Shown piece after piece: positions 6,669 to 41,169 of a DNA stretch of 64,000 nt. How positions within the stretch are numbered: position 1 is the stretch's first letter; each line of letters starts with the position of its first letter. Origin of the DNA: Pseudoleptotrichia goodfellowii (lineage in GTDB: Bacteria; Fusobacteriota; Fusobacteriia; Fusobacteriales; Leptotrichiaceae); NCBI RefSeq assembly GCF_007990505.1, contig NZ_AP019822.1:806001-870000 (forward strand), read 5' to 3'. A program made the translations under genes and the position numbers. Below the pieces are notes generated by a model. The model worked only from the letters and a program-made list of their open reading frames with translations. It searched no databases and was not told the DNA's origin.

Positions 6669-6701
6669 GTGATTGATAACAATCATACAACAAAAATATG
6701 A
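6669..6701 (+). CDS. Possible 10-codon ORF coupled to the BCCT gene
   Basis: AAAGGAG (6658-6664) lies 34 nt before the BCCT start, too far to serve it directly. A GTG at 6669 opens 10 codons (VIDNNHTTKI) and ends at a UGA overlapping the BCCT ATG as ATGA. Translational coupling is therefore plausible. The spacing to GTG is short (4 nt), so the call is tentative. Confidence 0.3.
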   Translation: MIDNNHTTKI

Positions 6702-8197
6702 GCGAAAAAACAAAAGACAATTCGGTTTATTTAATTTCAGTGTCTATTATAACTCTGGTTGTTTTATGCGGTCTTATATTTCCTAAAGGATTTGAGTTAT
6801 CGGCAAATATTTTGTTAAAAGGAATTGTTCATAATTTTGGATGGTTTTATACATTTGCAATGACCTGTTTTGTAGGATTTGCTATCTGGATAGCCTATTT
6901 TAGTAAATATAAAAACATGAAATTGGGACCCGATGATTCTAAACCTGAATACAGCAATTTATCATGGTTTGCAATGCTGTTTTCTGCGGGAATGGGAATA
7001 GGACTTGTTTTTTACGGAATATATGAGCCTCTATATCATTATGTAAATCCTATAGGAGCCGAATCAATGTCCGTTGATGCCGCTAAATTTGCTATGACGA
7101 AGTCGTTTCTTCATTGGGGATTGCATCCGTGGGCTAATTACAGTATATTGGGATTGGGATTAGCTTATATGCAGTTCAGAAGAAATAAACCGGGCTTAAT
7201 AAGCAGTTTATTTATACCGTTGATAGGCGAAGAAAAAGCAAAAGGGTATATCGGAAAACTTATTGATATATTGGCAATATTTGCTACTGCTGCGGGAATG
7301 GCTACATCATTAGGATTGGGAACATATCAAATCAGCAGCGGATTGAACTTTATGTTTAAAATTCCCGAAACAACTCTTATACAAATAATAATAGTTGTTG
7401 TTATTACTATTATATATACTTGGACAGCTGTAACGGGAATTGATAAAGGAATAAAATTTATTTCAAATTTGAATATGATTTTGGTTGTGGCTTTATTAGG
7501 TTTATCAATTATATTCGGACCGACTATTGATATTCTTAATATTTTCGGTGAAAGTACAGGAAATTATTTGCAAAGTTTGTTATCCAATACATTTGAAATA
7601 GGAGCTTTCAGCAAAACCGACTGGTATGGAGCGTGGACATTATTTTACTGGGCATGGTGGATTGCGTGGGCACCTTTTACAGGAACTTTTATAGCGAGAA
7701 TTTCCAAAGGACGTACAATAAGAGAATTTATAAGCGGTGTGCTTATTGTGCCGTCGTTAGTATCGTTTTTCTGGTTTTCAATATTCGGAGCAATAGATTT
7801 TGCAGTAGCAAAAGAAGTATTGGTAGAGGCTTCCAAAAATGCTTCAACTGCATTTTTCATGGTTATTAATAATATAACATTGGGAAATGTTATATCTGTA
7901 ATAGCAATAGCTTTGCTGTTTACTTTCTTTATTACTTCGGCAAACTCGGCAACATTTGTTTTAGGTATGTTGTCTCATGAAGGAGATTTAAATCCGCCTA
8001 ACTCGAAAAAACTCGTATGGGGAATTATACAATCGGCATTGGCTTTATCGTTGATGATAGGTTCGGCAAACGGATTGAAAATGTTACAGACAGTATCTAT
8101 CGTAGCGGCATTTCCTTTTGCGTTTATAATGTTACTGACTATAGTTTCTATAATGAAAGCTCTAAAAGAAGATGATCAATACAATCAATTAAAATAA
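6698..8197 (+). CDS. BCCT-family betaine/choline/carnitine transporter
   Basis: 499-residue inner-membrane carrier with about twelve hydrophobic segments. The blocks FAMLFSAGMGIGLVFYGIYEP, FFHWGLHPWANY-like (FLHWGLHPWANY) and FYWAWWIAWAPFTGTFIARI are diagnostic of BCCT carriers; the last contains the Trp-rich betaine-binding segment of TM8. It is first in the operon with grdI and grdH, 15 nt ahead of grdI, which makes glycine betaine the likely substrate. BCCT members are Na+- or H+-driven symporters or exchangers. No long hydrophilic C-terminal tail as in osmosensing members, which fits a catabolic rather than osmotic role. Confidence 0.93.
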   Translation: MSEKTKDNSVYLISVSIITLVVLCGLIFPKGFELSANILLKGIVHNFGWFYTFAMTCFVGFAIWIAYFSKYKNMKLGPDDSKPEYSNLSWFAMLFSAGMGIGLVFYGIYEPLYHYVNPIGAESMSVDAAKFAMTKSFLHWGLHPWANYSILGLGLAYMQFRRNKPGLISSLFIPLIGEEKAKGYIGKLIDILAIFATAAGMATSLGLGTYQISSGLNFMFKIPETTLIQIIIVVVITIIYTWTAVTGIDKGIKFISNLNMILVVALLGLSIIFGPTIDILNIFGESTGNYLQSLLSNTFEIGAFSKTDWYGAWTLFYWAWWIAWAPFTGTFIARISKGRTIREFISGVLIVPSLVSFFWFSIFGAIDFAVAKEVLVEASKNASTAFFMVINNITLGNVISVIAIALLFTFFITSANSATFVLGMLSHEGDLNPPNSKKLVWGIIQSALALSLMIGSANGLKMLQTVSIVAAFPFAFIMLLTIVSIMKALKEDDQYNQLK

Positions 8198-8212
8198 AAC
8201 TGGGAGGAATAT

Positions 8213-9541
8213 ATGAAAAAGTTAAGAATTCACAATTTTCACGTAAAAGATGTTGTATTCGGTGAAAAGACAAAATATGAAAATGGAGTTTTGTATATAA
8301 ACAAAGAAGAAGCACTAAATTTTATAAAAGAAGATAAGCATATTACAAGTGCAGATATAGAAATTGCAAAACCGGGAGAAGATATACGTATCGTACCTGT
8401 TAAAGAGGCAATAGAGCCTCGTGCGAGAAAAGACGGAAGAGCTGCATTTCCGGGAGTAACAGGAGATCTTGCTCCTTGCGGAGAAGGAGATTTGTATGCT
8501 CTTAAAGGAGTTTCGGTACTCGGTGTAGGTATGCACTGGGGGTCTTTCGGAGACGGACTTATCGATATGTCGGGAGAAGGACAGAAATATACAATATACG
8601 GAGAACTTATAAATATATGTCTTGTTGCTGATACTGATGAAGAATTTGAAAGACATGAACAACAAAAGAAAAACAGAGCAATCAGATGGGCAAGTCATAA
8701 ATTTTCCGAATATTTGGCTAAAGCAGTGTTGGAACAGACTTCAAACGATATAGAAGAATACGATTTTGAATCTGTAAGAAACAGAAAAGCAGATGTAGAA
8801 AAACTTCCGAGTGTAGTATTGGTAATGCAACCTCAATCTCAAATGGAAGAAATGGGATATAACGATTTAATATACGGATGGGATTTAAACCACTATGTTC
8901 CTACATTTGTAAATCCTAATGAAATACTTGACGGAGCTATTATATCCGGTTCATTTATGCCTGCTTCATCAAAATGGTCTACATACGATATGCAAAATTT
9001 CCCTATTATAAAAGAATTGTATAAAGAACACGGTAAGACAGTTAATTTCTTGGGAGTTATCCTTTCCAATCTGAACGTTTCATTGGAACAGAAAGAAAGA
9101 TCCGCAATCTTTGTTGCAAATCTTGCAAAAGCATTGGGAGCTGACGGAGCGATAGTTACAGAAGAAGGTTACGGAAACCCTGATACTGACTATATAAGAT
9201 GTATAGTTGCATTGGAAGATGTAGGAGTTAAAGTAGTAGGAATAAGTAACGAGTGTACAGGTAGAGACGGAGCAAGTCAGCCGTTAGTTGTGCTGGATGA
9301 AAAAGCAGATGCGTTAGTGTCTACAGGAAATGTATCAGAAATGATAGAACTTCCTGCAGCTAAAAAAGTTATAGGAGAACTTCAGTCATTGGCAAGAGAC
9401 GGATTGTCGGGAGGATGGGCTCACGATGAGATATTAGGTCCGAGTGTAAGAGAAGACGGTTCAATTATAATGGAAAATAATGCGATGTTCTGCGGAGATG
9501 CTATAGCGGGATGGTCTATAAAAACAATGAAAGAATTTTAA
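8213..9541 (+). CDS. grdI: Betaine reductase component B alpha/beta-type subunit (GrdI)
   Basis: 442-residue homologue of the GrdE/GrdG proprotein, next to grdH and a BCCT betaine carrier. At the position where glycine and sarcosine types have Asn-Cys (the pyruvoyl precursor) this protein has Ser247-Phe248 (IISGSFMPAS). It should therefore remain uncut and lack a pyruvoyl group. This fits betaine, whose quaternary nitrogen cannot form a Schiff base. Other family blocks (IEPRARKDGRAAFPGVTG, EEGYGNPDTD) are kept. It is 37 nt ahead of grdH with an AGGAGG site for the latter. Confidence 0.88.
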   Translation: MKKLRIHNFHVKDVVFGEKTKYENGVLYINKEEALNFIKEDKHITSADIEIAKPGEDIRIVPVKEAIEPRARKDGRAAFPGVTGDLAPCGEGDLYALKGVSVLGVGMHWGSFGDGLIDMSGEGQKYTIYGELINICLVADTDEEFERHEQQKKNRAIRWASHKFSEYLAKAVLEQTSNDIEEYDFESVRNRKADVEKLPSVVLVMQPQSQMEEMGYNDLIYGWDLNHYVPTFVNPNEILDGAIISGSFMPASSKWSTYDMQNFPIIKELYKEHGKTVNFLGVILSNLNVSLEQKERSAIFVANLAKALGADGAIVTEEGYGNPDTDYIRCIVALEDVGVKVVGISNECTGRDGASQPLVVLDEKADALVSTGNVSEMIELPAAKKVIGELQSLARDGLSGGWAHDEILGPSVREDGSIIMENNAMFCGDAIAGWSIKTMKEF

Positions 9542-9578
9542 AATGAAAATATAAAAATTCATTATACAGGAGGAAAAT

Positions 9579-10886
9579 ATGAAAAAAGCAATTCATTATA
9601 TAAATCAATTTTTTGGAGGAATCGGGGGAGAAGACAAGGCTGACTTTAAACCTGAGTTAAAGGAAGGAGTCGTAGGTCCTGGAATGGCTCTTAATTCATT
9701 AATGAAAGAAGTGCAGATAACTCATACAATCATTTGTGGAGATAACTACATGGGATCTAATAAAGATGAAGCTATATCGGAAATCATGAATTTAATAAAA
9801 GATTTGGACTTTGATTTCTTTATAGCGGGACCTGCATTTCAGGCAGGAAGATACGGAGTAGCATGCGGTAACATATGTAAGGCTATTAAAGATAAATATC
9901 ATATTCCTGTGGTAACTTCTATGAACGTGGAAAATCCGGGAGTAGAAATGTTTAAAAAAGAAATGCCCGTTTTTGAAGGCGGACATTCGGCAGCTGCAAC
10001 GAAAAACGATGCAGAACTTATGGCTAAATATATAGATAAAATAGCTAAAAATGAAACTTTGGGCGGAGCCGAAGAAAACGGATACTTCCCGAGAGGAGTA
10101 AGACATCAGGTATGGCTTGATTCAAAAGTAAGTGCAGCAAAACGTGGTGTAGATATGCTTGTTAAAAAACTTAACGGAGAAAAATTTGAAACTGAATTAC
10201 CTATACCTAAAAAAGATTCAGTACCTGTAGCTACACCTATAAAAAACTTGAAAAATGCAAAAATTGCTATTTTAACTACAGGAGGTATCGTTCCTGTGGA
10301 TAACCCTGACAGAATACAGTCAGCATCTGCAACAAGATGGGGAAGATATGATATATCCAAAATGGACAGATTAAAAGGCGGAGAATTTAAAACAATTCAC
10401 GCAGGATTTGATCCTGCAGCTGCAGACAATGACCCTAACGTAATCGTTCCTTTGGATGCAATGAGAAACTTATTGAAAAAAGGTGTTTACGGAAAACTTC
10501 ATGATTATTTCTACAGTACAGTAGGTACAGGAACTACTCAGGCCGAAGCATCAAGAATGGGTAAAGAAATGCTGGAACATTTAAAAGCCGATAATGTAGA
10601 CGGCGTTATAATGGTTTCCACTTGAGGTACTTGTACACGTTGCGGTGCAACGATCGTTAAAGAAATAGAAAAAGCGGGAATACCTATAGTTCAAATGTGT
10701 AACTTGGTACCGGTAGCCTTAACAGTAGGAGTTAATAAAATAGTTCCTACTATATCAATACCTTATCCTTTAGGAGATCCTGCTACACCGAAAGAAGAAC
10801 AGTATGAATTGAGAGAACACAGAGTAGCTGTGGCATTGGATGCATTGACAAAAGATGTAGACGGTCAGACAGTATTCAGAGTATAA
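9579..10886 (+). CDS. grdH: Betaine reductase component B gamma subunit, selenoprotein (GrdH)
   Basis: A 435-residue selenoprotein: UGA at 10623-10625 encodes Sec349 in MVST-U-GTCTRCGATIV, then 86 more codons to TAA. A SECIS hairpin (CGTTGC-GGT-GCAACG) follows at 18 nt spacing. It pairs with GrdI as the betaine-specific component B, splitting betaine to trimethylamine and a carboxymethyl-selenoether handed to GrdA. The betaine call rests on the BCCT neighbour and the missing pyruvoyl Cys in its partner. It is closely related to the gamma subunit at 3177-4496. A perfect terminator closes the operon. Confidence 0.9.
10623..10652 (+). promoter_or_regulatory. Sec codon and SECIS of GrdH
   Basis: UGA 10623-10625, 18 nt, GGT loop 10644-10646 closed by the six-pair stem CGTTGC/GCAACG. 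Confidence 0.88.
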
Positions 10887-13671: not shown

Positions 13672-13766
13672 GGAGATTTGATCTCATATCTCCCGCATTA
13701 CCGTAGTCGACGTAGGAGCGAAGGTCCCGGGTAGCGGGAGTATGAGGGCGGCGATGAGCCCTCATA
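13672..13766 (+). ncRNA. Unidentified GC-rich structured RNA element
   Basis: A GC-rich island in AT-rich surroundings between the DUF3343 and LysR genes. CTCCCGC (13690-13696) pairs with GCGGGAG (13734-13740), extended outward by CTCATA/TATGAG and inward by TACC/GGTA and GGA/TCC. TATGAGGGC (13741-13749) can instead pair with GCCCTCATA (13758-13766), excluding the outer stem. No T-tract follows on either strand, so it is not a simple terminator. I match it to no riboswitch or ribozyme class I can recall. It is either the 5' leader of the LysR mRNA or the 3' end of the selenium operon. Confidence 0.55.
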
Positions 13767-13813
13767 AAAAACATTTTTATCTATGTATATTCAATATAAG
13801 AAACGGAGAAAAT

Positions 13814-14722
13814 ATGGATTTTAAACAATTGGAAGTCTTTGTTCGGCTTGCTGAAAATAAGAGTTTTTCTGCAACGGCAAATGAGCTTAAAATATCTCAA
13901 CCTACAGTAAGTCTGCATATAAAGCAGTTGGAAGAGGAGCTGGATGCTCCTTTGTTTGTGCGTTCTACAAGAGAGTTGAAAATAACATTGACAGGAGAGA
14001 AACTATACAGACAGGTAAAAGAACTGTTGGAAAAGAAAGAATCCATAGTAAAATCCTTTTCAAATAAACGAAAAAAAGAAATGATATTGGGAGTATCTAC
14101 AATATCGGCAAATTATATTATGCCTCCTTTAATAAAAAAGTTCAATGAGGAGTTTCCGGATGTTTATGTAAATATATCCGAGAAAAACAGTGCCGAAACT
14201 ATAAAAAAAGTATCCGATTATAAAGTGGACATAGGGATAGTTGGAATGAAAATTCATGATGAAAACTGTGAATTTTATCCTATTTATAAGGATGAATTTG
14301 TATTTATAGCACCGAATACCGATTATTACAGAAAGCTGAAGGAAAGTAATCCGTCTTTAAAAGAACTGGTTAAAGAGCCTTTTATTTTGAGAGAAGACGG
14401 ATCGGGAGTAAAAAGAAACACTGAACTGATTTTTCAGTCTCAAAATGTAAATCCCGCCTCGATTAATACAGTTGCATCGGTAAACGGCATAGAAGTTATG
14501 AAACAACTGGTGGCAAGGGGAGTGGGAACTTCGCTTATTTCTAAAATTGCGGTAGAAGCCTGGGTTAAAAGGGGAGAACTTTTGGAAATTGAAATAAAAG
14601 AAAATCCGCATCAATATCGGCAGTTGTATTTAGTGTGGAATAAAAAAATAACATTGCCGACACATGTGCAGGAATTTTTAAAAATAGCAAAGAGAGGAGA
14701 TATTTGGGATAAATCAAAATAG
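13814..14722 (+). CDS. LysR-family regulator, selenium-metabolism type
   Basis: 302-residue LysR-type regulator. An N-terminal winged helix (MDFKQLEVFVRLAENKSFSA, with recognition helix QPTVSLHIKQLEEEL) is followed by a periplasmic-binding-like effector domain from about residue 90. I chose ATG 13814 (ACGGAG 5 nt upstream) over an upstream ATG whose extra residues overlap the structured RNA. A subgroup of LysR regulators is regularly found next to yedE/yedF and selenium genes; position here fits that group. The target and ligand are not known from sequence. Confidence 0.85.
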   Translation: MDFKQLEVFVRLAENKSFSATANELKISQPTVSLHIKQLEEELDAPLFVRSTRELKITLTGEKLYRQVKELLEKKESIVKSFSNKRKKEMILGVSTISANYIMPPLIKKFNEEFPDVYVNISEKNSAETIKKVSDYKVDIGIVGMKIHDENCEFYPIYKDEFVFIAPNTDYYRKLKESNPSLKELVKEPFILREDGSGVKRNTELIFQSQNVNPASINTVASVNGIEVMKQLVARGVGTSLISKIAVEAWVKRGELLEIEIKENPHQYRQLYLVWNKKITLPTHVQEFLKIAKRGDIWDKSK

Positions 14723-15310: not shown

Positions 15311-15973
15311 TTATATATTCAGATTATTAAGATTTTTGAAAAAATCCATCTGTGCAGCTTCTACATGTTTTTCACAAAGTTCCCTTATAATTTTAATAGG
15401 AGGATTTTCATTTAAAATCAGATCAATTATGCTTATATGTTCTTCTATAGCTTCGAGTCTACGGTTGTTTTCTCCGTATAAGACTCTTCTTATTCGATGC
15501 AAATGGTCATAAACCAAATTCATTTGTCTTGCAAAAAATAAGTTTCCGCAGTTTCCTGCAAAAAAATATCTGTATCCGTCATATAATTTATCAAACTCTT
15601 TTCCCGAAACTTTTTCTTTTTTTCCCATTTTCTCAAATCTTTTTTTAAATTCTGAAAGAGCAGTTTTAAGTTCATCTTTATTTAGAAAAAAAATAGTCAA
15701 TTCTACTAAAAGAGGCTCAATTCTCGAACGGACCTGAAAAACATCTCTAATTAATTTTAAATCAACTTCAGTTACCGATACGGATTTTCTCGGATTAATA
15801 ATAACAAAGTTTTCATTTTCCAGTTGAGATAAAGCTTCTTTTACAGGAGTTTTACTTATAGAAAGCTCTTCTGCAATTTGTTTTTCGGATATTGTATCTT
15901 TTGCTTTGAATTCATTGTTCAATATTTTGCCTTTTATATATTCATATGCTAATGTATCTAATTTCTGTTTCAT
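15311..15973 (-). CDS. GntR-family regulator (FCD domain)
   Basis: 220-residue regulator: an N-terminal GntR winged helix (IAEELSISKTPVKEALSQLE), then an all-helical FCD ligand-binding domain with the metal-site type residues (RSRIEPLLVELT, HLHRIRR, EHISIIDLI, HVEAA). It is divergent from the ureidoglycolate/oxalurate operon with a 331-nt gap, the usual position of a local repressor. I infer control of that operon by a pathway intermediate. No strong Shine-Dalgarno is seen before the ATG. Confidence 0.9.
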   Translation of the reverse strand: MKQKLDTLAYEYIKGKILNNEFKAKDTISEKQIAEELSISKTPVKEALSQLENENFVIINPRKSVSVTEVDLKLIRDVFQVRSRIEPLLVELTIFFLNKDELKTALSEFKKRFEKMGKKEKVSGKEFDKLYDGYRYFFAGNCGNLFFARQMNLVYDHLHRIRRVLYGENNRRLEAIEEHISIIDLILNENPPIKIIRELCEKHVEAAQMDFFKNLNNLNI

Positions 15974-16245: not shown

Positions 16246-16304
16246 TATAGCAAGAAATATAATTTACAAATGTAATATATAAAAATATCAAAGGAGGAAT
16301 TGAA

Positions 16305-19304
16305 ATGCTTTATACTGTATTAAAAGAAAACAGTTATCAGGATTCTATTAATTTGATGCTGTTGACAAATCATATCAGTACGATGAAAGGAGTAAATAAA
16401 GTACAGATTATGATGGGAACTGATGCCAATAAGGATATTTTCAATACTGCAGGATTACTTTCCAAAGAAGCTGAAGCAGCGAAAGCAAGTGATATGGTAG
16501 TGGTTGTAGACAGTAATGATGAATCGGTTGTGAAAGAAGTAATGGAAGCAATTGATAAATTTTTAGCAGATTTATCCGTAAAAAAAGATGAAGGAGTACA
16601 ACAGTTTGTTAAAAGCTGGCAACAGGCAAAAGAAGTGATGCCTGAAGCAAATATGGCACTTATTTCCGTACCGGGAATTTATGCGGCTCTTGAAATAGAA
16701 AATGCAATAGATAACGGACTGCATGCTTTTGTATTCAGTGATAATGTTCCGAAAGATGAAGAAGTAAGATTAAAGAAAAAAGCACATGAAAAAGGACTTT
16801 TAGTAATGGGACCTGATTGTGGAACAGGAATTGTAAGTAATGTACCTCTTGCTTTTACAAATGTGGTACGTTCGGGAAATATCGGAATAGTTGGAGCTTC
16901 AGGAACAGGAATACAGGAAATTTCTACAATTGTTGAAAAACTTGGCGGAGGAGTTATACACGCAATAGGAACAGGAGGACGTGACTTGTCTACCGAAGTA
17001 GGAGCAATAACTACAAAAGATGCATTGGCAGGGCTTGCACATCATGAGACTACAGATGTAATAGTAGTAGTTTCAAAACCGCCTGCAAAAGAAGTAAAAG
17101 ATGATGTAGTAAAATTATTACACAGCTTAGGAAAACCTGTTGTAGCTATTTTCCTCGGAGAGAAACCCGAATGTCATGAAGGAAATGTGTATTTTGCTCA
17201 TACATTGGAAGAATGTGCAAAAATTGCAGTAGATCTTGCAAAAGGTGAAAAAGTAAAAGCAAATTATCAAAATAAATCCGATATTCATTCAAAAGATAGT
17301 GAAATTTCAGATAAAACAGTTAAAGGATTGTATTCCGGAGGAACATTGGCTTATGAAGCAGCTATGCTTGTATCTGAAGCATTAAAATTATCTTCATCGG
17401 TAAAAGAAGAAGGATATATGTTAAAAACTGACGGATTTGAAATTATGGACTTGGGAGATGATATTTATACTCAAGGGAAACCTCATCCAATGATAGATCC
17501 GAGTGTACGTATTGAAAAACTTCGTGAATTCGGTGTAGATCCTAAAACAGGAGTTATTTTACTTGATGTAGTATTAGGATACGGTGCTCATGAAGATATG
17601 GCGGGACAATTGGCTCCTGTTATAAAAGAAATATTGAAAAAAGCGGAATCTGAAAAAAGAAAACTTTATATTATAGGTACAGTATGTGGAACTAAAGGTG
17701 ATCCGCAAAATTATGAAAAATCTCAAAAAGTTCTCGAAGAAGCGGGAATGCTTGTAAAAGAAAGTAATGCAAGTGCATTGAGAACAGCGTTGAATCTAAT
17801 GGGAACTGATGTTGATGAAACAGAGAAAGAATTTAAAGAATACAAAGGTGAAAAAACTCCTTTACCTGAAGTAAGTGAGGCAATAAAAGATTTACTTTTG
17901 ACAAAACCGAGAGTAATTAATATAGGAGTGGGAGGATTTACAGAACCTGTAAGACAGTATGGCGGAAAATGCGTTCAGTTTGAATGGAAGCCGATAGCAG
18001 GCGGAAATCAAAAGCTCATTAAGATTTTACAACAGTTAAAAAATCTTGAAACTCTTGAAAAAGAAAATAATTTAGTCGTAGAAGCTATGAAAAATGCAGC
18101 ACCTTATTTGATAGATGTAGTTCCCGCTTACACAGTTATACCTGAAATAAACGGAAAAGTATTATTACATGCGGGACCGCCTATTACATATGCTGAAATG
18201 ACAGGGCCTATGCAGGGTTCATGTATAGGAGCTGCATTGTTTGAAGGATGGGTGGAAAATGAAGAAGAAGCACGTAAGTTGCTTGAAACGGGAGAAGTGA
18301 AATTTATTCCTTGTCATCATGTAAAAGCGGTAGGTCCTATGGGAGGAATAACTTCTGCAAACATGCCTGTACTTGTAGTTGAAAACAGATTAACAGGAAA
18401 TCGTTCTTATTGTACATTAAATGAGGGTATAGGAAAAGTATTACGTTTTGGAGCATATTCCGAAGAAGTTGTAAACAGACTGCAATGGATGAAAGATGTA
18501 TTAGGTCCTGTGTTAGGTCAGGCAGCAAAACAGGTTCAGGGAGGAATCAACTTAAATGTAATTATAGCAAAAGCTATTACTATGGGAGATGAATTTCATC
18601 AACGTAATATTGCGGCAAGTCTTCTGTTCTTAAAAGAAGTAACTCCAATAATAGTTACATTGGATATAGATGATAAAAAGAAAAAAGATGTTATTCAATT
18701 TTTAGCAAATACGGATCAGTTCTTCCTTAATATTATGATGGCTACAGGAAAAGCCGTAGTAGACGGAGCCCGTGTAAATAAGGCAGGAACAATAGTTACA
18801 ACGATGACACGTAACGGTAAAGATTTCGGAATACGTATAAGCGGACTTGGCGATGAATGGTTTACGGCTCCGGTTAATACGCCGAAAGGACTGTTCTTTA
18901 CAGGATTTACTCAGGACGATGCCAATCCTGATATAGGAGACAGTGCGATTACAGAAACTGTAGGTGTAGGAGGAATGACTATGATAGCTGCTCCCGGAGT
19001 AACAAGATTTGTAGGAGCCGGAGGATTTAAAGATGCTTTAAAAGTAAGTGATGAAATGTCTGAAATATGTACAATTCATAATCCTAATTTTGCTATTCCT
19101 ACTTGGGACTTTAAAGGAGCACCTTTGGGAATAGATATAAGAAAAGTAGTAGAAACAGGAATAACACCTGTTATAAATACAGGAATAGCTCATAAAAATG
19201 CAGGCGTAGGGCAGGTAGGAGCAGGAACTGTAAGAGCACCTTTAGCATGTTTTGAAAAAGCCCTGGTAGCTTATGCAAAACATATCGGTTTGGATGTTGA
19301 ATAA
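16305..19304 (+). CDS. FdrA-YlbE (DUF1116) fusion: predicted oxamate carbamoyltransferase AllF-AllG
   Basis: 999 residues combining two proteins that are separate in E. coli. Residues 1 to about 515 are FdrA: a succinyl-CoA-ligase-like part with VGASGTGIQEISTIVEKLGG, GTGGRDLSTEVG and a second ligase-like domain ending near VKESNASALRTALNLMG. About 535-999 is the YlbE/DUF1116 domain (RVINIGVGGFTEPV, FEWKPIAGGNQ, LHAGPPITYAEMTGPM). With the following AllH-like subunit these form the oxamate carbamoyltransferase that converts oxalurate to oxamate and carbamoyl-phosphate. AllD nearby supplies oxalurate. The next gene starts within the stop codon (TAATG). No frameshift is seen, so the fusion looks genuine. 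Confidence 0.88.
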   Translation: MLYTVLKENSYQDSINLMLLTNHISTMKGVNKVQIMMGTDANKDIFNTAGLLSKEAEAAKASDMVVVVDSNDESVVKEVMEAIDKFLADLSVKKDEGVQQFVKSWQQAKEVMPEANMALISVPGIYAALEIENAIDNGLHAFVFSDNVPKDEEVRLKKKAHEKGLLVMGPDCGTGIVSNVPLAFTNVVRSGNIGIVGASGTGIQEISTIVEKLGGGVIHAIGTGGRDLSTEVGAITTKDALAGLAHHETTDVIVVVSKPPAKEVKDDVVKLLHSLGKPVVAIFLGEKPECHEGNVYFAHTLEECAKIAVDLAKGEKVKANYQNKSDIHSKDSEISDKTVKGLYSGGTLAYEAAMLVSEALKLSSSVKEEGYMLKTDGFEIMDLGDDIYTQGKPHPMIDPSVRIEKLREFGVDPKTGVILLDVVLGYGAHEDMAGQLAPVIKEILKKAESEKRKLYIIGTVCGTKGDPQNYEKSQKVLEEAGMLVKESNASALRTALNLMGTDVDETEKEFKEYKGEKTPLPEVSEAIKDLLLTKPRVINIGVGGFTEPVRQYGGKCVQFEWKPIAGGNQKLIKILQQLKNLETLEKENNLVVEAMKNAAPYLIDVVPAYTVIPEINGKVLLHAGPPITYAEMTGPMQGSCIGAALFEGWVENEEEARKLLETGEVKFIPCHHVKAVGPMGGITSANMPVLVVENRLTGNRSYCTLNEGIGKVLRFGAYSEEVVNRLQWMKDVLGPVLGQAAKQVQGGINLNVIIAKAITMGDEFHQRNIAASLLFLKEVTPIIVTLDIDDKKKKDVIQFLANTDQFFLNIMMATGKAVVDGARVNKAGTIVTTMTRNGKDFGIRISGLGDEWFTAPVNTPKGLFFTGFTQDDANPDIGDSAITETVGVGGMTMIAAPGVTRFVGAGGFKDALKVSDEMSEICTIHNPNFAIPTWDFKGAPLGIDIRKVVETGITPVINTGIAHKNAGVGQVGAGTVRAPLACFEKALVAYAKHIGLDVE

Positions 19305-20083
19305 TGAATAAATCACATGAAAAGTATGGAGAAGACGGAAGCATCAGTGAATTGATGCTCCTGTATCTCAAAAATCAAAAAATCGGTTATATTCACAGTA
19401 TATTTAAAAGTTCTTTAAATATCCGATTTGGAGAAAATTTAATTCATATTTCAGGGGATAATAAAGGGTTAACATGTTTCGGATGTTGTATAACGGGAAA
19501 AAAAATAAAGAATATAATTTTAAATGCAGATATAGACGATATTGTAATAAAAAAGGGTAATAATCTTTTATTCTATACAAATTCAGGTGTTCGGGAAATT
19601 GATATTTTAAAATTGAAAAAAGTGAATTTAAAAATCGAAAATATAAAAATATCTGAAAAAATATTGGAAGAAATATTTGGACATTTAAAAAATATAAATT
19701 TTGAGGAAAAAACAGGAATAGAAAATAAGGAAGTTATAAAATATTTACAAGAGGCAATTTCCGAAGAAAGTCAAAGATATTTAACGGGAAGAGGCAAAGG
19801 ACTTACTCCTTCAGGTGATGATATTTTAGTAGGGTTTGCATTAATACAACATTTATGTACAGGAAATGTTGAACTTAAATGCGGAGATTTGACTACTGAT
19901 ATAAGTAGACAATATTTTAAAGCATTTAATGAAGGCTATACAAATCAATATTTGATTGAATTATTTTCCGGAAATATTGAAAAATCTATTTGTAATATCA
20001 CTCAAATAGGACATACTTCGGGATATGATTTGCTATTCGGGATATTTTTAGGAATAAAAAAATTTTTAAAATGGAGGAAATAA
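19304..20083 (+). CDS. DUF2877 protein, AllH/YlbF-like subunit of oxamate carbamoyltransferase
   Basis: 259-residue DUF2877 protein. The C-terminal motif LTGRGKGLTPSGDDILVGF is the family signature (G-x-G-x-G-L-T-P-S-G-D-D). In E. coli the DUF2877 protein YlbF (AllH) works with FdrA and YlbE. Its ATG overlaps the last base of the fusion gene stop, which indicates translational coupling and 1:1 assembly. The N-terminal half is poorly conserved. Confidence 0.82.
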   Translation: MNKSHEKYGEDGSISELMLLYLKNQKIGYIHSIFKSSLNIRFGENLIHISGDNKGLTCFGCCITGKKIKNIILNADIDDIVIKKGNNLLFYTNSGVREIDILKLKKVNLKIENIKISEKILEEIFGHLKNINFEEKTGIENKEVIKYLQEAISEESQRYLTGRGKGLTPSGDDILVGFALIQHLCTGNVELKCGDLTTDISRQYFKAFNEGYTNQYLIELFSGNIEKSICNITQIGHTSGYDLLFGIFLGIKKFLKWRK

Positions 20084-20084
20084 A

Positions 20085-21344
20085 ATGAGCAGTATGTTGG
20101 AAAAGCGTTATAAAGCGATGAATGTATCAGAGCGTTACTGGTGGAAAGTAGTAGCATTATGTTTTGCAGGATGGATTTTAATGTATGCAGACAGAACTAT
20201 TTTAGGACCTGTTATGGGAAATATAGCTGAACAGTTTAATTTAAATAATACCCAATTGGGAGCTGTAAACAGTATATTTTTCCTTACATATGCAATTATG
20301 CAGATACCTTTTGGAATAGTCGGAGATAGAATAGGGAGAAGACTTGTAATTACTTTCGGATTTGTTTTGTTCGGAGTAACTACGTTTTTAAGCGGAATAG
20401 CGAGCGGATTGGGTGTATTCATGATATACAGAGCCATAACAGGAATAGGAGAAGGTGCATATTACGGACCTCAATATGCTTTGTCGGGTGAGGCAATACC
20501 CCAAAAAAGCTTGGCTTTAGGAACAGCTATTATAAACAGTGGTATGGCTTTCGGAACATCGGGAGGATATTTACTGTCAAGTTACCTTGTGTTACAGAAA
20601 GGGCATCATTGGAGTTTACCTTTCTTTATCATGTCGGTACCTACAATTATAGTAGGATTACTGTTTATGACTTTGAAAGAAAGAGTTATCAAACCTGAAG
20701 ATGCAGGAAAAGAAGTAATACAGGAAGTAAAAGAAGAAATTAAAAAAGAAAAAACTTCAGGATTGTCCGTATTCAAGAATAAAAACTTAATGTGTGCATT
20801 TTTGCTGCTATTTTGTTCAATTTATGCAAATTTTGTTATAATAACATGGCTTCCTGAATTTTTGAAACAGGAAAGAGGTTTTGCAGGAACAAGTGTAGGA
20901 TTTATAGCTTCATTAGTTCCTTGGTCTTCAATACCGGGAGCATTGTTATTTGCAAGATTATCGGATAAATTGAAAAAAACGAAAATATTTGTATATTCAT
21001 TAGTTCCTTTGGCACTTATTTCTACATTCAGTATGGCTTATGTAACAAACAGAACAGTTTTAATACTTATGCTTATATTATACGGATTAACAGGAAAATT
21101 AGCATTAGATCCCATACTGGTAGCATATGTTACTAAAAACTCTCCGAAAGAAGCATTGGGAACAGCATTAAGTGCATATAATTTTATAGGTATGTCTGCT
21201 GCTATTACGGCTCCATTTATAACGGGATGGTTAAAAGATAAATTCGGTTCTATGCAATCAGGATTTTATCTTGCTTCAGTTCTATTGCTTGTAGGGATGT
21301 TAATATTCAGTGCTGCAAGTGAAAATGGAAATAAAAAAGTGTAG
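20085..21344 (+). CDS. MFS transporter (anion:cation symporter type)
   Basis: 419-residue carrier with twelve hydrophobic segments. The N-terminal pattern RYWWKVVALCFAGWILMYADR and the motif GDRIGRRLVI after TM2, plus YYGPQYALSGEAIP in TM5, resemble the ACS family that moves organic acids (hexuronate, tartrate, phthalate). It begins 1 nt after the AllH-like gene with an AGGAGG site inside that gene. In context it likely imports ureidoglycolate, allantoate-derived acids, or exports oxamate; this is inferred. Confidence 0.88.
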   Translation: MSSMLEKRYKAMNVSERYWWKVVALCFAGWILMYADRTILGPVMGNIAEQFNLNNTQLGAVNSIFFLTYAIMQIPFGIVGDRIGRRLVITFGFVLFGVTTFLSGIASGLGVFMIYRAITGIGEGAYYGPQYALSGEAIPQKSLALGTAIINSGMAFGTSGGYLLSSYLVLQKGHHWSLPFFIMSVPTIIVGLLFMTLKERVIKPEDAGKEVIQEVKEEIKKEKTSGLSVFKNKNLMCAFLLLFCSIYANFVIITWLPEFLKQERGFAGTSVGFIASLVPWSSIPGALLFARLSDKLKKTKIFVYSLVPLALISTFSMAYVTNRTVLILMLILYGLTGKLALDPILVAYVTKNSPKEALGTALSAYNFIGMSAAITAPFITGWLKDKFGSMQSGFYLASVLLLVGMLIFSAASENGNKKV

Positions 21345-21401
21345 TATAAATTAGAAATTATATTATAAATAATTTATTAAAATTTTAGAGAGGTGAGTCA
21401 A

Positions 21402-22469
21402 ATGAATGATGTAGTCATAGTGTCTCCTGATAAATTGCATAATCTTATTAAAAATAAATTGGAAAAAGCAGGATTAAAATCCGAGCATGCCGATGAAGTG
21501 GCAAAACATTTAGTATTTGCAGATAGTTGCGGTATTCATTCTCATGGAGCGGTTCGTGTAGATTATTATGCCGAAAGAATTGCAAAAAAAGGTGTTACGA
21601 TAGATCCTAAAATGAGTTTCGAGAAAACAGGTCCTTGTACAGGGATTTTCCACGGAGATAACGGAATAGGACAATATGTGGCTGAAAAAGCATTGAAATA
21701 TGCGATTGAGATGGCTAAGGAAAATGGAGTAGCTATAGTGGGAGTCGAAAAATTAAGTCATAGCGGTACAATGGCGTACTATTTGAACGAAATAGCTGAA
21801 AATGATTTAATAGGACTTTCAATGTGTCAATCAGATCCTATGGTAGTTCCTTTCGGAGGAAGAGAGCCTTATTACGGAACAAATCCTATAGGATTCGGAG
21901 CTCCCGCTTCGGAAGGATTGCCTATTGTATTTGATATGGCAACGTCAGTTCAGGCTTGGGGTAAAATCCTTGATGCCCGTTCTAAAAATATGGAGATTCC
22001 CGATACATGGGCTGTGGACAGAAAAGGTGTACCCACAACAAATCCTCATGATGTAGGGGCATTGTTGCCTATTTCAGGGCCTAAAGGTTATGGACTTATG
22101 ATGATAGTGGATATTCTGTCAGGCTTGATGTTAGGATTGCCTTTCGGAGGACATGTTTCTTCAATGTATGATAAAATGTCTGAAGGAAGAGATTTAGGGC
22201 ACACATTTATATTAATAGATCCTTCAAGATTTATGGATATAAATAAATTTAAAGAAAATATTACTAAAACAAAAAAAGAATTGCATAGTATAAAAGCTGC
22301 TGAAGGTTTTAAACAGGTATTTTATCCGGGTGAAGTAAGTCAGATTACTTATGAAAAATATCAGAGAGAAGGAATTCCTGTAGAAAAAGGAATATACGAA
22401 TATTTAGTAAGCGATATAGTTCATTATGATAAATTCGGAGGACAAAGTGCTTTTGCAAGTAAAAAATAA
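21402..22469 (+). CDS. allD: Ureidoglycolate dehydrogenase (AllD, Ldh2 family)
   Basis: 355-residue NAD(P)-dependent oxidoreductase of the malate/L-lactate dehydrogenase (Ldh2) family. It oxidises (S)-ureidoglycolate to oxalurate. The blocks GIHSHGAVRVDYYAERI, MCQSDPMVVPFGG, SVQAWGKILDARSKNMEIPD and GPKGYGLMMIVDILSGLMLG agree closely with what I recall of E. coli AllD. ATG 21402 is preferred over the upstream GTG because GAGAGGTGA is its ribosome site. Together with FdrA-YlbE and the AllH-like protein it completes ureidoglycolate to oxamate plus carbamoyl-phosphate. Carbamate kinase is not in the window. Confidence 0.93.
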   Translation: MNDVVIVSPDKLHNLIKNKLEKAGLKSEHADEVAKHLVFADSCGIHSHGAVRVDYYAERIAKKGVTIDPKMSFEKTGPCTGIFHGDNGIGQYVAEKALKYAIEMAKENGVAIVGVEKLSHSGTMAYYLNEIAENDLIGLSMCQSDPMVVPFGGREPYYGTNPIGFGAPASEGLPIVFDMATSVQAWGKILDARSKNMEIPDTWAVDRKGVPTTNPHDVGALLPISGPKGYGLMMIVDILSGLMLGLPFGGHVSSMYDKMSEGRDLGHTFILIDPSRFMDINKFKENITKTKKELHSIKAAEGFKQVFYPGEVSQITYEKYQREGIPVEKGIYEYLVSDIVHYDKFGGQSAFASKK

Positions 22470-22524: not shown

Positions 22525-23784
22525 ATGTCTGAAAAGAAAAAATTATTAAATTTATCATTAACAAGCCAAATATTAATAGCAACTTTCGGAGGGATTATAT
22601 TCGGCGGTGTTGTCGGTCCTTGGGCCTCAAATTTAAAAGTATTTGGAGATATTTTTCTAAGATTGATACAAATGTCGGTTATAATGCTTGTAATGTCCGC
22701 AGTTATAGTAGCAGTCGGCAGAGGGAGTACAGGTGATGCAGGAAAAATAGGATTTCATACATTTAAATGGATTATATTTTTCACACTGACTTCAGCTTTT
22801 ATGGGAGTAGTTTTATCTTATTATATCCAACCCGGAATAGGTGTTGCTCATATGACGGAAGTCGGTAAAAATGCAGTAACTGCCAATGCACTTCAGGATA
22901 CTTCACTAAAAGATACTATACTTGCTTTTTTTACCACCAATATTTTCTCATCTATGGCAAGCAGTGCAATGGTCCCTTGTATAATATTTTCTCTGTTTTT
23001 CGGAATTGCAATGTCGCAACATATAAGAGATACAGGAAAAACCATTGTTTTAGACTGGATTTTATCGGTAAATGAAATTATTGTAAATATAATAAAAAAT
23101 GTAATGAAAGTATCACCTATAGGAATCTTCTGTTTACTTGCCGATGTTACCGGAAGTAAAGGTTTTACAGTAATAATACCCATGATAAAATTTTTGATTA
23201 TATTAATTATAGGAGATATACTGCAATTAGTAATTTACGGACTTATAACAGCTTTTATATGCAAGGTGAATCCTTTAAAAATGCCGAAGAAATTTGCAAA
23301 AATGTCTATTATAGCACTTACAACAACTTCAAGTGCGATAAGTCTTCCTACAAAAATGGAAGATACAGTTATAAAATTCGGTGTCAGCAGAAAAGTATCA
23401 GATTTTACAGGTCCTATAACAATGTCTATGAATTCATCAGGTTGGGCTTTGTGTAATGTTACAGCGATATTTTTTATAGCACAGTTTTCAGGAGTGCAGC
23501 TTACGCCTTATCAAATGGTAATGGCAGTTATACTTTCCTGTTTAATGTGCATGGGAAGCGTAGTTGTGCCGGGAGGAGCTATTATTGTCTTTACATTCCT
23601 TGCGACTTCAATGGGTCTGCCTCTCGACAGTATAGTCGTACTCATAGGGATAGACTGGTTTTCAGGAATGTTCAGAACTTTAAATAATGTCGATATAGAT
23701 GTTCTTGTAGCTATGCTTGTAGCTAACAGAATAGGTGAATTTGACAGAGATGTTTATAACAATAAAAAAGTTGTTGAATATTAA
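22525..23784 (+). CDS. Dicarboxylate/amino acid:cation symporter (DAACS family)
   Basis: 419-residue carrier of the glutamate-transporter-homologue fold. Visible: eight transmembrane segments, the serine-rich re-entrant loop ALTTTSSAISLPT, the TM7 block GWALCNVTAIFFIAQ in place of the usual NMDGT motif, and the second re-entrant loop VVPGGAIIVFTFLATSMGLP. It is the last gene of the operon, 55 nt after allD, with AGGAGGG as ribosome site. A Na+- or H+-coupled uptake of a carboxylate (ureidoglycolate, oxalurate) is inferred. The altered NMDGT region suggests a non-standard substrate. Confidence 0.88.
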   Translation: MSEKKKLLNLSLTSQILIATFGGIIFGGVVGPWASNLKVFGDIFLRLIQMSVIMLVMSAVIVAVGRGSTGDAGKIGFHTFKWIIFFTLTSAFMGVVLSYYIQPGIGVAHMTEVGKNAVTANALQDTSLKDTILAFFTTNIFSSMASSAMVPCIIFSLFFGIAMSQHIRDTGKTIVLDWILSVNEIIVNIIKNVMKVSPIGIFCLLADVTGSKGFTVIIPMIKFLIILIIGDILQLVIYGLITAFICKVNPLKMPKKFAKMSIIALTTTSSAISLPTKMEDTVIKFGVSRKVSDFTGPITMSMNSSGWALCNVTAIFFIAQFSGVQLTPYQMVMAVILSCLMCMGSVVVPGGAIIVFTFLATSMGLPLDSIVVLIGIDWFSGMFRTLNNVDIDVLVAMLVANRIGEFDRDVYNNKKVVEY

Positions 23785-37288: not shown

Positions 37289-38314
37289 ATGGATAAAAAA
37301 GATTTAAACATGATAGTTTGCGGAGGGTGAAACTCGAAAATAGGGCCGGGTGCTCTTTCAAGTTTATTAAAGGATTTGCCCAAAAAGGAAGATAAAAATT
37401 TAATAGTGGGATATGAATCTTCGGATGATGCCGCAGTTTACAAAATATCCGAAGATAAAGCAATCATCCAGACATTGGACTTCTTTACAACGATGATTAA
37501 CGATCCTTATTTATACGGACAAATAGCTGCAACTAATGCTCTCAGTGATATTTACGCAATGGGCGGAGAAGTAATATCCGCTTTAAATATAGTTGCTTTT
37601 CCTGAAAAAATGGATATGGAAATATTGCATCAAATATTGAAAGGCGGAGCGGAAAAAGTTCATGAAGCGGGAGGAGTTCTTGCAGGAGGTCATTCTATAC
37701 ATGATTCTACACCGAAATACGGGCTGTCTGTTACGGGAATTATACATCCCGATAAAATACTCATGAATAATAACTGTAAAGAAGGAGATGCTCTTATAGT
37801 TACGAAACCTTTGGGAGTGAGTATTATAAATTCGGCTCATATGATCGGTGAATGTTCTGAAGAAACTTTCGCAAAATGTATTAAGCAAATGACGACGTTA
37901 AATAAATATGCAGCGGAAATTATGAAAAATTATCCTGTAAACAGCTGTACAGATATAACAGGATTCGGATTTTTAGGGCATTTGTATGAAATGCTGGATG
38001 GGAAATACTCTGCAGAAATTATAGGGAAAGATATTCCCATGCTTCCCGAAGCCTATCGTTGTGCAGGTGATTTTATAATCACATCAGGCGGACAGCTGAA
38101 CAGAAATTATCTTCAGGATAAAGTGGATTTTAAAATTAAGGATTTTCCTTTGGAAGAAATAATGTATGATCCGCAAACATCGGGAGGACTTTTAATAAGT
38201 TTACCTTCAGAATATGCGGAAGAATTACTTGAAAAACTTAATAAACTTGAAATTAAAAGTGCCGTTGTAGGAAAAGTAATAAAAAAACAGGAAAAAGACA
38301 TAATAATAGTATAA
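37289..38314 (+). CDS. selD: Selenide, water dikinase SelD (selenoprotein)
   Basis: 341 residues including Sec14 (UGA 37328-37330) in VCGGUNSKIGPGAL, the active-site position held by Cys or Sec in SelD. It makes selenophosphate from selenide and ATP. ATG 37289 is in frame, preceded by GGGAGGAGGAC. A downstream-only reading would miss the catalytic N-terminus. Other blocks: SSDDAAVY, DFFTTMINDPYLYGQIAATNALSDIYAMGG, TDITGFGFLGHL. As SelD itself needs Sec, the pathway has a positive-feedback start. A SECIS-like hairpin follows the UGA. First gene of the selD-yedF-DUF3343-selB-selA run. Confidence 0.95.
37328..37356 (+). promoter_or_regulatory. Sec codon and probable SECIS of selD
   Basis: UGA 37328-37330, then 16 nt, loop CGGGT (37347-37351) closed by AGGGC/GCTCT (one G-U). 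A short but plausible SelB site, weaker than those of the grd genes. Confidence 0.6.
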
Positions 38315-38352
38315 TTTTGTCGACAAAAATAACAGATAAGGAGAAAACATCA

Positions 38353-38940
38353 ATGAAAAAATATGAATTAAACGCAAAAGGATTGGCTTGTCCCATACCT
38401 GTAGTAAAAACTAAAAAACTTTTGGAAGAATATGATACAGTAGAAACGACAGTAGATAATTTTACTGCAACTCAAAATCTGACAAAATTGGCTGAACAGT
38501 TGGATTATAATATTGATGTAAAAACTGTAAGTGAAGAAGAATACGTTGTAACAATATCGGCTAAAGAAGAAAGCAAAAAAGCCGAAAAAACTTCACAAGC
38601 AGAAGACGACAGTTATATTGTTGTAATAAATAAACAGATAATGGGGTACGGAAGCGAAGAATTAGGAAAAAAACTGATGAAAGCCTTTTTATATACTTTG
38701 ACTGAACAGAAAGTTCTGCCTAAAAAAGTTATATTTTATAACGGAGGGGCTTTATTAGTGGATAAAACCCGAAGTCATGTATTGGAAGAGTTGAAAGAGC
38801 TTGAAGACAACGGCGTGGAAATAATGTGCTGCGGAGCATGTATAGATTATTATAATGTGGAACTCGCATTGGGAAATCCTTCAAATATGTATTTTATAGT
38901 TGAAGAAATGAGAAATGCAAATAAAGTAGTGCGTCCGTAG
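38353..38940 (+). CDS. yedF: Selenium metabolism protein YedF
   Basis: 195 residues: an N-terminal TusA-like domain (LNAKGLACPIPVVKTKKLLEEYD, conserved Cys in GLACP) and a C-terminal DsrE-like domain (GYGSEELGKKLMKAFLYTLTEQ, ending in CCGACIDYY). This two-domain form is the selenium-linked YedF. It probably moves selenium or sulfur between proteins near SelD. I take ATG 38353 (AAGGAGAAAAC upstream) over an earlier start. It lies 38 nt after selD. Confidence 0.9.
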   Translation: MKKYELNAKGLACPIPVVKTKKLLEEYDTVETTVDNFTATQNLTKLAEQLDYNIDVKTVSEEEYVVTISAKEESKKAEKTSQAEDDSYIVVINKQIMGYGSEELGKKLMKAFLYTLTEQKVLPKKVIFYNGGALLVDKTRSHVLEELKELEDNGVEIMCCGACIDYYNVELALGNPSNMYFIVEEMRNANKVVRP

Positions 38941-38947
38941 GTGGAAA

Positions 38948-39247
38948 ATGATAAAAACGAAAGATGAAGGAATAGTAGTATTTCATAATACACACGACGC
39001 GATAAAAGCTGATAATATATGTATGTCTAAGCAAATAAAAGCGGGATTGATACCGGTACATCCTTCTATCAGTTTGGGATGCGGTTTTATGTTGAAAACC
39101 GAATGGAAAGATTTCAGTAATTTAATAAAAACCTTAGACGATGAAAATATAAATTACAAGGCTCTTTATTATTCCCAAAAAAGGGGTATGAAAAGAGAAG
39201 TTGAATTGTTATATGAAGATAAAGAAGATATAACGACAGAAAAATAA
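38948..39247 (+). CDS. DUF3343 putative Se/S carrier protein (second copy)
   Basis: 99 residues, with [38 protein letters not shown]; Cys in LGCG is the likely carrier residue. A homologue of the protein at 13392-13628 with a longer acidic C-terminal tail. Between yedF and selB in the Sec operon, 7 nt after yedF. Family role by association only. Confidence 0.85.
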
Positions 39248-39275
39248 AAAATACTGCCTGGAGAAGAGATAAATT

Positions 39276-41153: not shown

Positions 41154-41169
41154 CAAACGGGAGAAGATT

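What the first reader, a model, noticed from the sequence alone, without database searches (positions are those of the whole stretch)
16305..20083. Fused FdrA-YlbE with AllH-like subunit: oxalurate phosphorolysis
E. coli keeps FdrA, YlbE and YlbF separate; here the first two form one 999-residue chain and the third is coupled by a TAATG overlap. With AllD adjacent, the route ureidoglycolate to oxalurate to oxamate and carbamoyl-phosphate is complete, an ATP-yielding end of purine or allantoin breakdown. No allantoinase, allantoate amidohydrolase or carbamate kinase is nearby, so the cell may take up ureidoglycolate from other organisms.
Basis: partly seen in the sequence, partly recalled or inferred. 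Interest (0 to 1): 0.6.

Follow-up and report, generated by a model that had tools for sequence, protein, structure and literature searches.

The report
Fused oxalurate-splitting enzyme with uptake genes
A fermenting bacterium carries a compact gene set, including a fused version of a known enzyme, that probably imports a leftover of purine breakdown and splits it to make ATP; the enzyme is known, but the fused form and its life apart from the rest of the allantoin pathway are not well described.

Summary
Window 16305-19304 is one 999-codon frame joining AllF (39% identical to E. coli AllF) and AllG (63%). AllH follows with a one-base TAATG overlap. Then come an MFS carrier, a ureidoglycolate dehydrogenase (AllD) that passes its curated cut-off and keeps all nine active-site residues mutated in the E. 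coli enzyme, and an SDF-family carrier. AllFGH was shown in 2024 to be oxamic transcarbamylase, so oxalurate phosphorolysis is the best reading.

The complete 2.29-Mb genome has no AllC or AllE match and no allantoinase above cut-off, which fits uptake from outside. The missing carbamate kinase exists about 427 kb away, in the arginine deiminase operon.

The fusion is not unique. 74 of 87 loci examined are fused (a biased sample), the label changes at least three times on the tree, and the window's copy sits inside a Bacillota clade, suggesting lateral transfer. In 23 of 34 genomes with the same allFG-allH-MFS cassette, neither AllD nor AllC passes cut-off anywhere. The cassette is therefore probably a portable scavenging unit, and in many bacteria the imported compound may be oxalurate itself.

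Known enzyme, new architecture and context. No activity was tested.

The parts
15311..15973 (-). GntR/FCD-family regulator, divergent from the cassette; likely its local regulator (inferred)
   Evidence: PF00392 48.9 bits and PF07729 38.5 bits; kept at the same place in L017, L101, L102, L106
16218..16245 (+). promoter-like site TTGACT-16-TATAAT (11 of 12)
   Evidence: best of 41 sites against 43 expected by chance, so weak on its own, but it lies in the divergent intergenic region
16292..16297 (+). ribosome-binding site AGGAGG before the fused gene
   Evidence: read from the sequence
16305..19304 (+). fused allF-allG, 999 aa: AllF part residues 1-579, AllG part residues 583-996
   Evidence: model with 38 sequences pLDDT 83, pTM 0.78; matches 3dmy (E. 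coli FdrA) and 3clq (E. faecalis)
19304..20083 (+). allH, 259 aa, TAATG overlap with the fused gene
   Evidence: PF11392 60.6 bits; overlap seen; invariant residues within the GRGxGLTPSGDD and GHTSGxD stretches among 41 sequences
20085..21344 (+). MFS carrier, candidate importer of oxalurate/ureidoglycolate (inferred)
   Evidence: PF07690; nearest NCBIfam TIGR00893 167.8 bits, below its cut-off of 395; median 523 bits to 35 MFS proteins of the other cassette loci, 244 to 12 in loci with AllB/C/E
21393..22469 (+). allD, ureidoglycolate dehydrogenase, 358 aa (GTG start; an in-frame ATG lies three codons on)
   Evidence: TIGR03175 583 bits, cut-off 496; 54% identical to E. coli AllD; active-site residues kept
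22525..23784 (+). SDF-family carrier (PF00375), perhaps oxamate export or substrate entry (inferred)
   Evidence: an SDF gene is present in 33 of 36 cassette loci

Best explanation
The cassette encodes the oxamate branch of anaerobic ureide fermentation, fed from outside the cell. A carrier (most likely the MFS protein) imports ureidoglycolate or oxalurate; AllD oxidises ureidoglycolate to oxalurate, giving NADH; the complex of fused AllF-AllG with AllH splits oxalurate with phosphate into oxamate and carbamoyl phosphate; the carbamate kinase of the arginine deiminase operon turns carbamoyl phosphate and ADP into ATP, ammonia and CO2; oxamate is a waste product that must leave the cell, perhaps through the SDF carrier. 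Shown by sequence: gene identities, fusion, order, absence of upstream enzymes, presence of the kinase. Inferred: substrates, carriers, direction, regulation.
For: All three OXTCase parts pass family cut-offs. The E. coli enzyme with these three proteins is proven (PMC11326118). AllD is above its equivalog cut-off with all nine tested active-site residues conserved. AllG occurs once in the genome. AllC 0 matches, AllE 0 matches, allantoinase below cut-off (274.6 vs 357.9 bits; that gene is a hydantoinase, 569 bits to TIGR02033, in a ygeW-X-Y operon). Carbamate kinase 405 bits, over cut-off, beside arginine deiminase- and ornithine carbamoyltransferase-like frames (those two neighbours named by eye). 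Same cassette in three other Leptotrichiaceae genomes and, with variations, in Bacillota. The model's AllF and AllG halves match solved AllF (3dmy) and AllG (3clq).
Against: No activity was tested. AllH is only 24% identical to E. coli AllH. Carbamate kinase is not in the operon, unlike E. coli allFGHK. In 23 of 34 genomes with the same cassette neither AllD nor AllC passes cut-off, so oxalurate formation from ureidoglycolate is not the general use. The MFS and SDF proteins match no NCBIfam carrier above cut-off. E. coli AllFGH has a Km of 36.9 mM for oxamate in the synthetic direction (PMC11326118 abstract), so the physiological flux is not well established even there.
Confidence: 0.75

Rival explanations
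1. The natural imported substrate is oxalurate itself (or parabanate, which hydrolyses to it), formed outside the cell, for example when urate is oxidised; AllD is an add-on in this lineage.
For: 23 of 34 tested cassette genomes have neither AllD nor AllC over cut-off, 20 of those 23 with carbamate kinase in the locus (genome searches). Singlet oxygen turns uric acid into parabanic acid, which hydrolyses to oxaluric acid at neutral pH (PMC5703782, abstract and passages). The title of a 1965 paper reports induction of the enzyme by parabanic acid in a streptococcus (seen in reference lists only).
Against: The window and its close relatives keep AllD in the cassette. Amounts of free oxalurate in the habitat are unknown. 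A different, unrecognised enzyme could make oxalurate in AllD-less genomes.
Confidence: 0.35
2. The fused enzyme acts on another carbamoyl compound in the cassette lineage (a different transcarbamylase).
For: AllD, AllC and AllE are dispensable for the cassette; an alpha/beta hydrolase of unknown role is linked in 60 of 81 loci.
Against: In this window AllD sits in the same run of genes with its ureidoglycolate-binding residues intact. AllG is 63% identical to the E. coli protein. Fused proteins also stand in loci with AllB, AllC, AllE and AllD.
Confidence: 0.12
3. AllF keeps an acyl-CoA synthetase role (oxamate:CoA ligase), as older annotation has it.
For: NCBIfam and Pfam names; succinyl-CoA synthetase fold; proposed in PMC3364942 (passages).
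Against: E. coli OXTCase needs AllF, AllG and AllH together (PMC11326118). The AllF profile aligns to E. coli SucD only up to residue 236, before its GHAGA histidine 246.
Confidence: 0.05

Closest known systems
Oxamic transcarbamylase AllFGH of Escherichia coli (fdrA, ylbE, ylbF)
   Same: Same three components, same order, AllD near by
   Different: AllF and AllG are one chain here; AllK is not in the operon; AllB, AllC and AllE are missing from the genome; MFS and SDF carriers are in the cassette; a divergent GntR/FCD gene is the nearest regulator
Oxamic transcarbamylase activity of Streptococcus allantoicus and other streptococci (1960s biochemistry; cited in PMC11326118, original papers not read)
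   Same: Probably the same enzyme; related Enterococcus and Streptococcus loci found here encode the fused form
   Different: The gene of S. allantoicus itself was not examined here
allFGHK clusters of ammonia-oxidising archaea and comammox (PMC12625717, passages)
   Same: AllFGH without upstream allantoin genes, proposed to use oxalurate made by others
   Different: Those are linked to biuret genes; nitrifiers, not fermenters; no fusion is mentioned in the passages seen
YgeW-type carbamoyltransferase of reductive urate breakdown (PMC12507026, passages)
   Same: Phosphorolysis of a ureido group to carbamoyl phosphate; also present in this genome
   Different: Unrelated family (OTCase-like); acts on ureidopropionates

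Membership tests
AllFGH oxamic transcarbamylase | AllF (FdrA) component | tested here: met
   NF004760 705 bits, cut-off 433; 39% identity to E. coli AllF; model matches 3dmy
AllFGH oxamic transcarbamylase | AllG component | tested here: met
   PF06545 324 bits, cut-off 27; 63% identity; model matches 3clq with TMt 0.88
AllFGH oxamic transcarbamylase | AllH component | tested here: met
   PF11392 60.6 bits, cut-off 25; 24% identity
AllFGH oxamic transcarbamylase | carbamate kinase available to use carbamoyl phosphate | tested here: met
   TIGR00746 405 bits at C1:1297090-1298010, in the arginine deiminase operon, not in this cassette
AllFGH oxamic transcarbamylase | oxalurate + phosphate <-> oxamate + carbamoyl phosphate activity | not testable with these tools
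   needs enzyme assay
Ureidoglycolate dehydrogenase AllD | equivalog score and active-site residues S43, H44, R48, Y52, H116, S140, D141, M251, R259 (E. coli numbering; PMC3527362) | tested here: met
   583 bits, cut-off 496; all nine kept in the window protein
Classical transcarbamylases (ATCase/OTCase/YgeW) | aspartate/ornithine carbamoyltransferase domains | tested here: not met
   no such Pfam domain in the fused protein or in AllH
NDP-forming acyl-CoA synthetase | phospho-histidine of the succinyl-CoA synthetase alpha chain (GHAGA, E. coli SucD H246; its role is recalled) | tested here: inconclusive
   profile alignment stops at SucD 236; the window has H291 near by but E. coli AllF has no His in that column
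Complete allantoin pathway (AllB, AllC, AllE, AllD, AllFGH, AllK) | AllB, AllC and AllE in the genome | tested here: not met
   AllC 0 matches, AllE 0 matches, allantoinase below cut-off in a complete one-contig genome

The most novel reading that the evidence does not exclude
The fused AllF-AllG, AllH and MFS unit (often with carbamate kinase and an SDF carrier) is a portable, stand-alone cassette for scavenging free oxalurate, spread laterally through Bacillota and into Leptotrichiaceae. In most carriers it works without any allantoin catabolism, possibly living on urate that has been oxidised by reactive oxygen (parabanate to oxalurate), with AllD a later add-on. The linked alpha/beta hydrolase, or in another variant a CodA-like amidohydrolase, would then be unknown feeder enzymes.
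Probability: 0.3. Interest if true: 0.6.

Novelty: new variant of a known kind. Interest (0 to 1): 0.42.

Why it matters
OXTCase got its genes only in 2024 and its subunit arrangement is unknown. A natural AllF-AllG fusion that appears in separate lineages suggests that the two subunits touch at 1:1, and gives a two-chain enzyme that should be easier to solve. The cassette also suggests that oxalurate, usually treated as an internal step of allantoin use, is a compound shared or scavenged between cells, which bears on how gut and animal-associated bacteria use purine waste.

Tried and rejected
Rejected: the fusion as a sequencing error (intact at 88% identity in other genomes). The fusion as unique (74 of 87 loci). 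Missing carbamate kinase (found). The hydantoinase at C1:557074-558435 as allantoinase (274.6 bits, below cut-off; 569 bits to D-hydantoinase). AllF as CoA ligase (third rival).

Led nowhere: one search used a wrong family accession (an unrelated regulator). The invariant-residue list was spoiled by antisense frames and is replaced. No PDB fold match of note for AllH: best Foldseek E 0.11, best VIA Z 4.9 over 71 residues; the helical half was barely tested. Promoter scan: total count not above chance. CodA-like amidohydrolase as parabanate hydrolase: all 14 sequences keep the histidines at E. coli CodA 62, 64, 215 and 247 and Gln157 but have Phe for Glu218 and Asn for Asp314, so it is not an ordinary cytosine deaminase and may not be an ordinary hydrolase (the roles of these CodA residues are recalled). 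The idea is left open, without support from the residues.

Rows dropped: three loci (L058, L081, L093) lost their fused frame to antisense frames in the gene-calling, so FG counts 78 of 81 there. Two of 36 cassette loci (L076, L077) were not searched genome-wide. L012 and L017 carry identical AllG rows and lie on contigs of the same length (16012), so they are taken as the same genome.

Full report
What is there. The window lies at C1:806001-870000 of a complete 2,290,729-base genome. The nearest named relative is a Leptotrichiaceae bacterium whose fused protein is 88% identical. At 16305-19304 a single frame of 999 codons joins AllF and AllG. AllH follows with a TAATG overlap. Then come an MFS carrier, AllD and an SDF-family carrier, all on the + strand. 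A GntR/FCD regulator stands divergently upstream. AGGAGG precedes the fused start. The gaps between genes are 1 base (allH-MFS), 48 (MFS-AllD) and 55 (AllD-SDF) by the coordinates, so an operon is likely but not shown.

Identity of the parts. AllG is 63% identical to E. coli AllG, AllF 39%, AllH 24% over 192 residues, AllD 54%. AllD scores 583 bits to the AllD equivalog model, cut-off 496. It keeps all nine residues that were mutated in E. coli AllD, including the essential R48 and H116 (residues from PMC3527362 passages). The AlphaFold model of the fusion (38 sequences, pLDDT 83, pTM 0.78) matches 3dmy, E. coli FdrA, and 3clq, an Enterococcus faecalis protein deposited as of unknown function. 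By sequence 3clq is an AllG (E 5e-112). The match of the AllF half to 3dmy has a good E-value but a poor overall rmsd (20 A over 482 columns), so the placing of its domains in the model is not reliable. AllH folds confidently (pLDDT 93.7) and has no clear PDB match.

Function. Kim and Kim (PMC11326118; abstract, discussion and passages read) showed that AllF, AllG and AllH together are oxamic transcarbamylase. A term search of that paper found no 'fused' and one 'fusion', a lacZ reporter. I found no description of the natural fusion in the library under these searches: 'oxamate carbamoyltransferase'+'FdrA', oxalurate/carbamoyltransferase/AllFGH, fdrA+ylbE+fusion, 'oxamic transcarbamylase', and oxalurate/transporter/AllD/Enterococcus; most hits were seen as listings only. 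This says nothing about subscription papers.

Genome context. AllG occurs once. AllC and AllE have no match; the best allantoinase match (274.6 bits, cut-off 357.9) is a hydantoinase. That hydantoinase belongs to a run of genes ygeW-ygeX-ygeY-NCS1 permease-hyuA at about C1:551436-558468. YgeW, YgeX, YgeY and HyuA are enzymes of the late steps of reductive urate breakdown, where YgeW also yields carbamoyl phosphate (PMC12507026 passages). One carbamate kinase passes cut-off, in an arginine deiminase operon (the neighbours arginine deiminase and ornithine carbamoyltransferase are named by eye). So three sources of carbamoyl phosphate (arginine, YgeW substrates, oxalurate) may feed one kinase. 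This is inference.

Relatives. Of 301 stretches matched in the genome collection 271 encode relatives and the best 80 were kept. With the window and six loci from same-family genomes, 74 of 87 carry AllF and AllG in one frame. The sample was drawn with a fused query and is biased to fused forms; L012 and L017 appear to be one genome. In the phylum, 7 of 98 genomes have AllG, window included, all in the same family: four with a long open frame (996-1013 codons) and three with a short one (423-430). On an AllG tree of 88 rows (quick method, SH-aLRT) the fused label needs three changes, and starred branches force three. Independent fusions are the simple reading, but the tree cannot tell gain from loss. 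The window and its family's other fused copies sit inside a 62-row fused clade (99*) whose other members are Bacillota and Actinomycetota. The three split copies of the same family branch elsewhere. This suggests lateral transfer.

Neighbourhoods. Over 81 loci (window and L017-L096): AllH in 64, carbamate kinase 66, MFS 50, SDF 41, AllD 32, AllC 26, AllE 18, AllB 16, an alpha/beta hydrolase 60, a PucR-type regulator 55. Thirty-six loci have allFG, AllH and MFS with none of AllB/C/E in the fetched flank; 27 of these have the kinase, 33 SDF, 10 AllD. Genome-wide, 34 of the 36 were searched for AllD and AllC. In 23 neither passes cut-off; 6 have AllD alone (L017, L045-L047, L073 and the window); 5 have both. 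Some of the 23 have weaker matches to AllC (for example 286, 261, 250 and 295 bits against a cut-off of 598) or AllD (203 and 167 bits), which could be other amidohydrolases or dehydrogenases. Allantoinase and AllE were searched only in the first set of 27 genomes. Several are draft genomes, so absences there are weaker than in the window's own genome.

What it means. For the window, AllD plus the fused OXTCase plus a distant carbamate kinase make a short ATP-yielding route from ureidoglycolate, with uptake required. For the cassette at large, oxalurate itself is the likelier imported compound. Oxalurate can form without enzymes: urate plus singlet oxygen gives parabanate, which hydrolyses to oxaluric acid (PMC5703782, abstract and passages). 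The alpha/beta hydrolase is present in 22 of the 23 cassette loci whose genomes lack AllD and AllC, and absent from the window, L017 and L045-L047, which have AllD without AllC; but L073 has both, and loci with the full pathway carry it too. Its role is unknown.

Scores. The enzyme is known, the fusion widespread. What is new is the architecture and the evidence that the unit travels apart from allantoin catabolism. Interest 0.42.

Noticed in passing
Own genome C1:551436-558468 (locus L097:3437-10469): Run of genes ygeW-ygeX-ygeY-NCS1 permease-hyuA, late steps of reductive urate/ureide breakdown; E. coli XdhA, YgfK and SsnA found no match in the fetched stretch.
   Followed up: partly
L018:3246-4100 (-) and 60 of 81 loci: Alpha/beta hydrolase (PF07859/PF20434) beside a PucR regulator, usually divergent from allFG; in 22 of 23 cassette loci whose genomes lack AllD and AllC. 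Unknown role.
   Followed up: partly
L063:11379-12608, L103:13004-14230 and others: CodA-like amidohydrolase plus a permease next to allF/G-allH-allK; 14 of 14 lack the Glu and Asp found at E. coli CodA 218 and 314 (Phe and Asn instead).
   Followed up: partly
L103, L104, L105 (same family as the window, larger genomes): Split allF and allG with allH, carbamate kinase, a permease and the CodA-like gene, from another branch of the AllG tree: probably two separate acquisitions in one family.
   Followed up: partly
window 6698-10625 and 37376-42543: By eye: a BCCT-type carrier, GrdE/GrdB-like frames (the second ending where a selenocysteine TGA may lie) and selD/selB/selA-like genes; a selenium-linked LysR regulator at 13742-14722 passes its NCBIfam cut-off. 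Only the regulator was tested.
   Followed up: no
PDB 3clq (Enterococcus faecalis V583): Deposited as of unknown function; by sequence and fold it is an AllG, so a solved OXTCase subunit is already public.
   Followed up: yes
L081-L094 (Lachnospiraceae type): Fused allFG with AllK and a lactate-permease-like gene but no AllH recognised near by in most; AllH may be very divergent or lacking.
   Followed up: no
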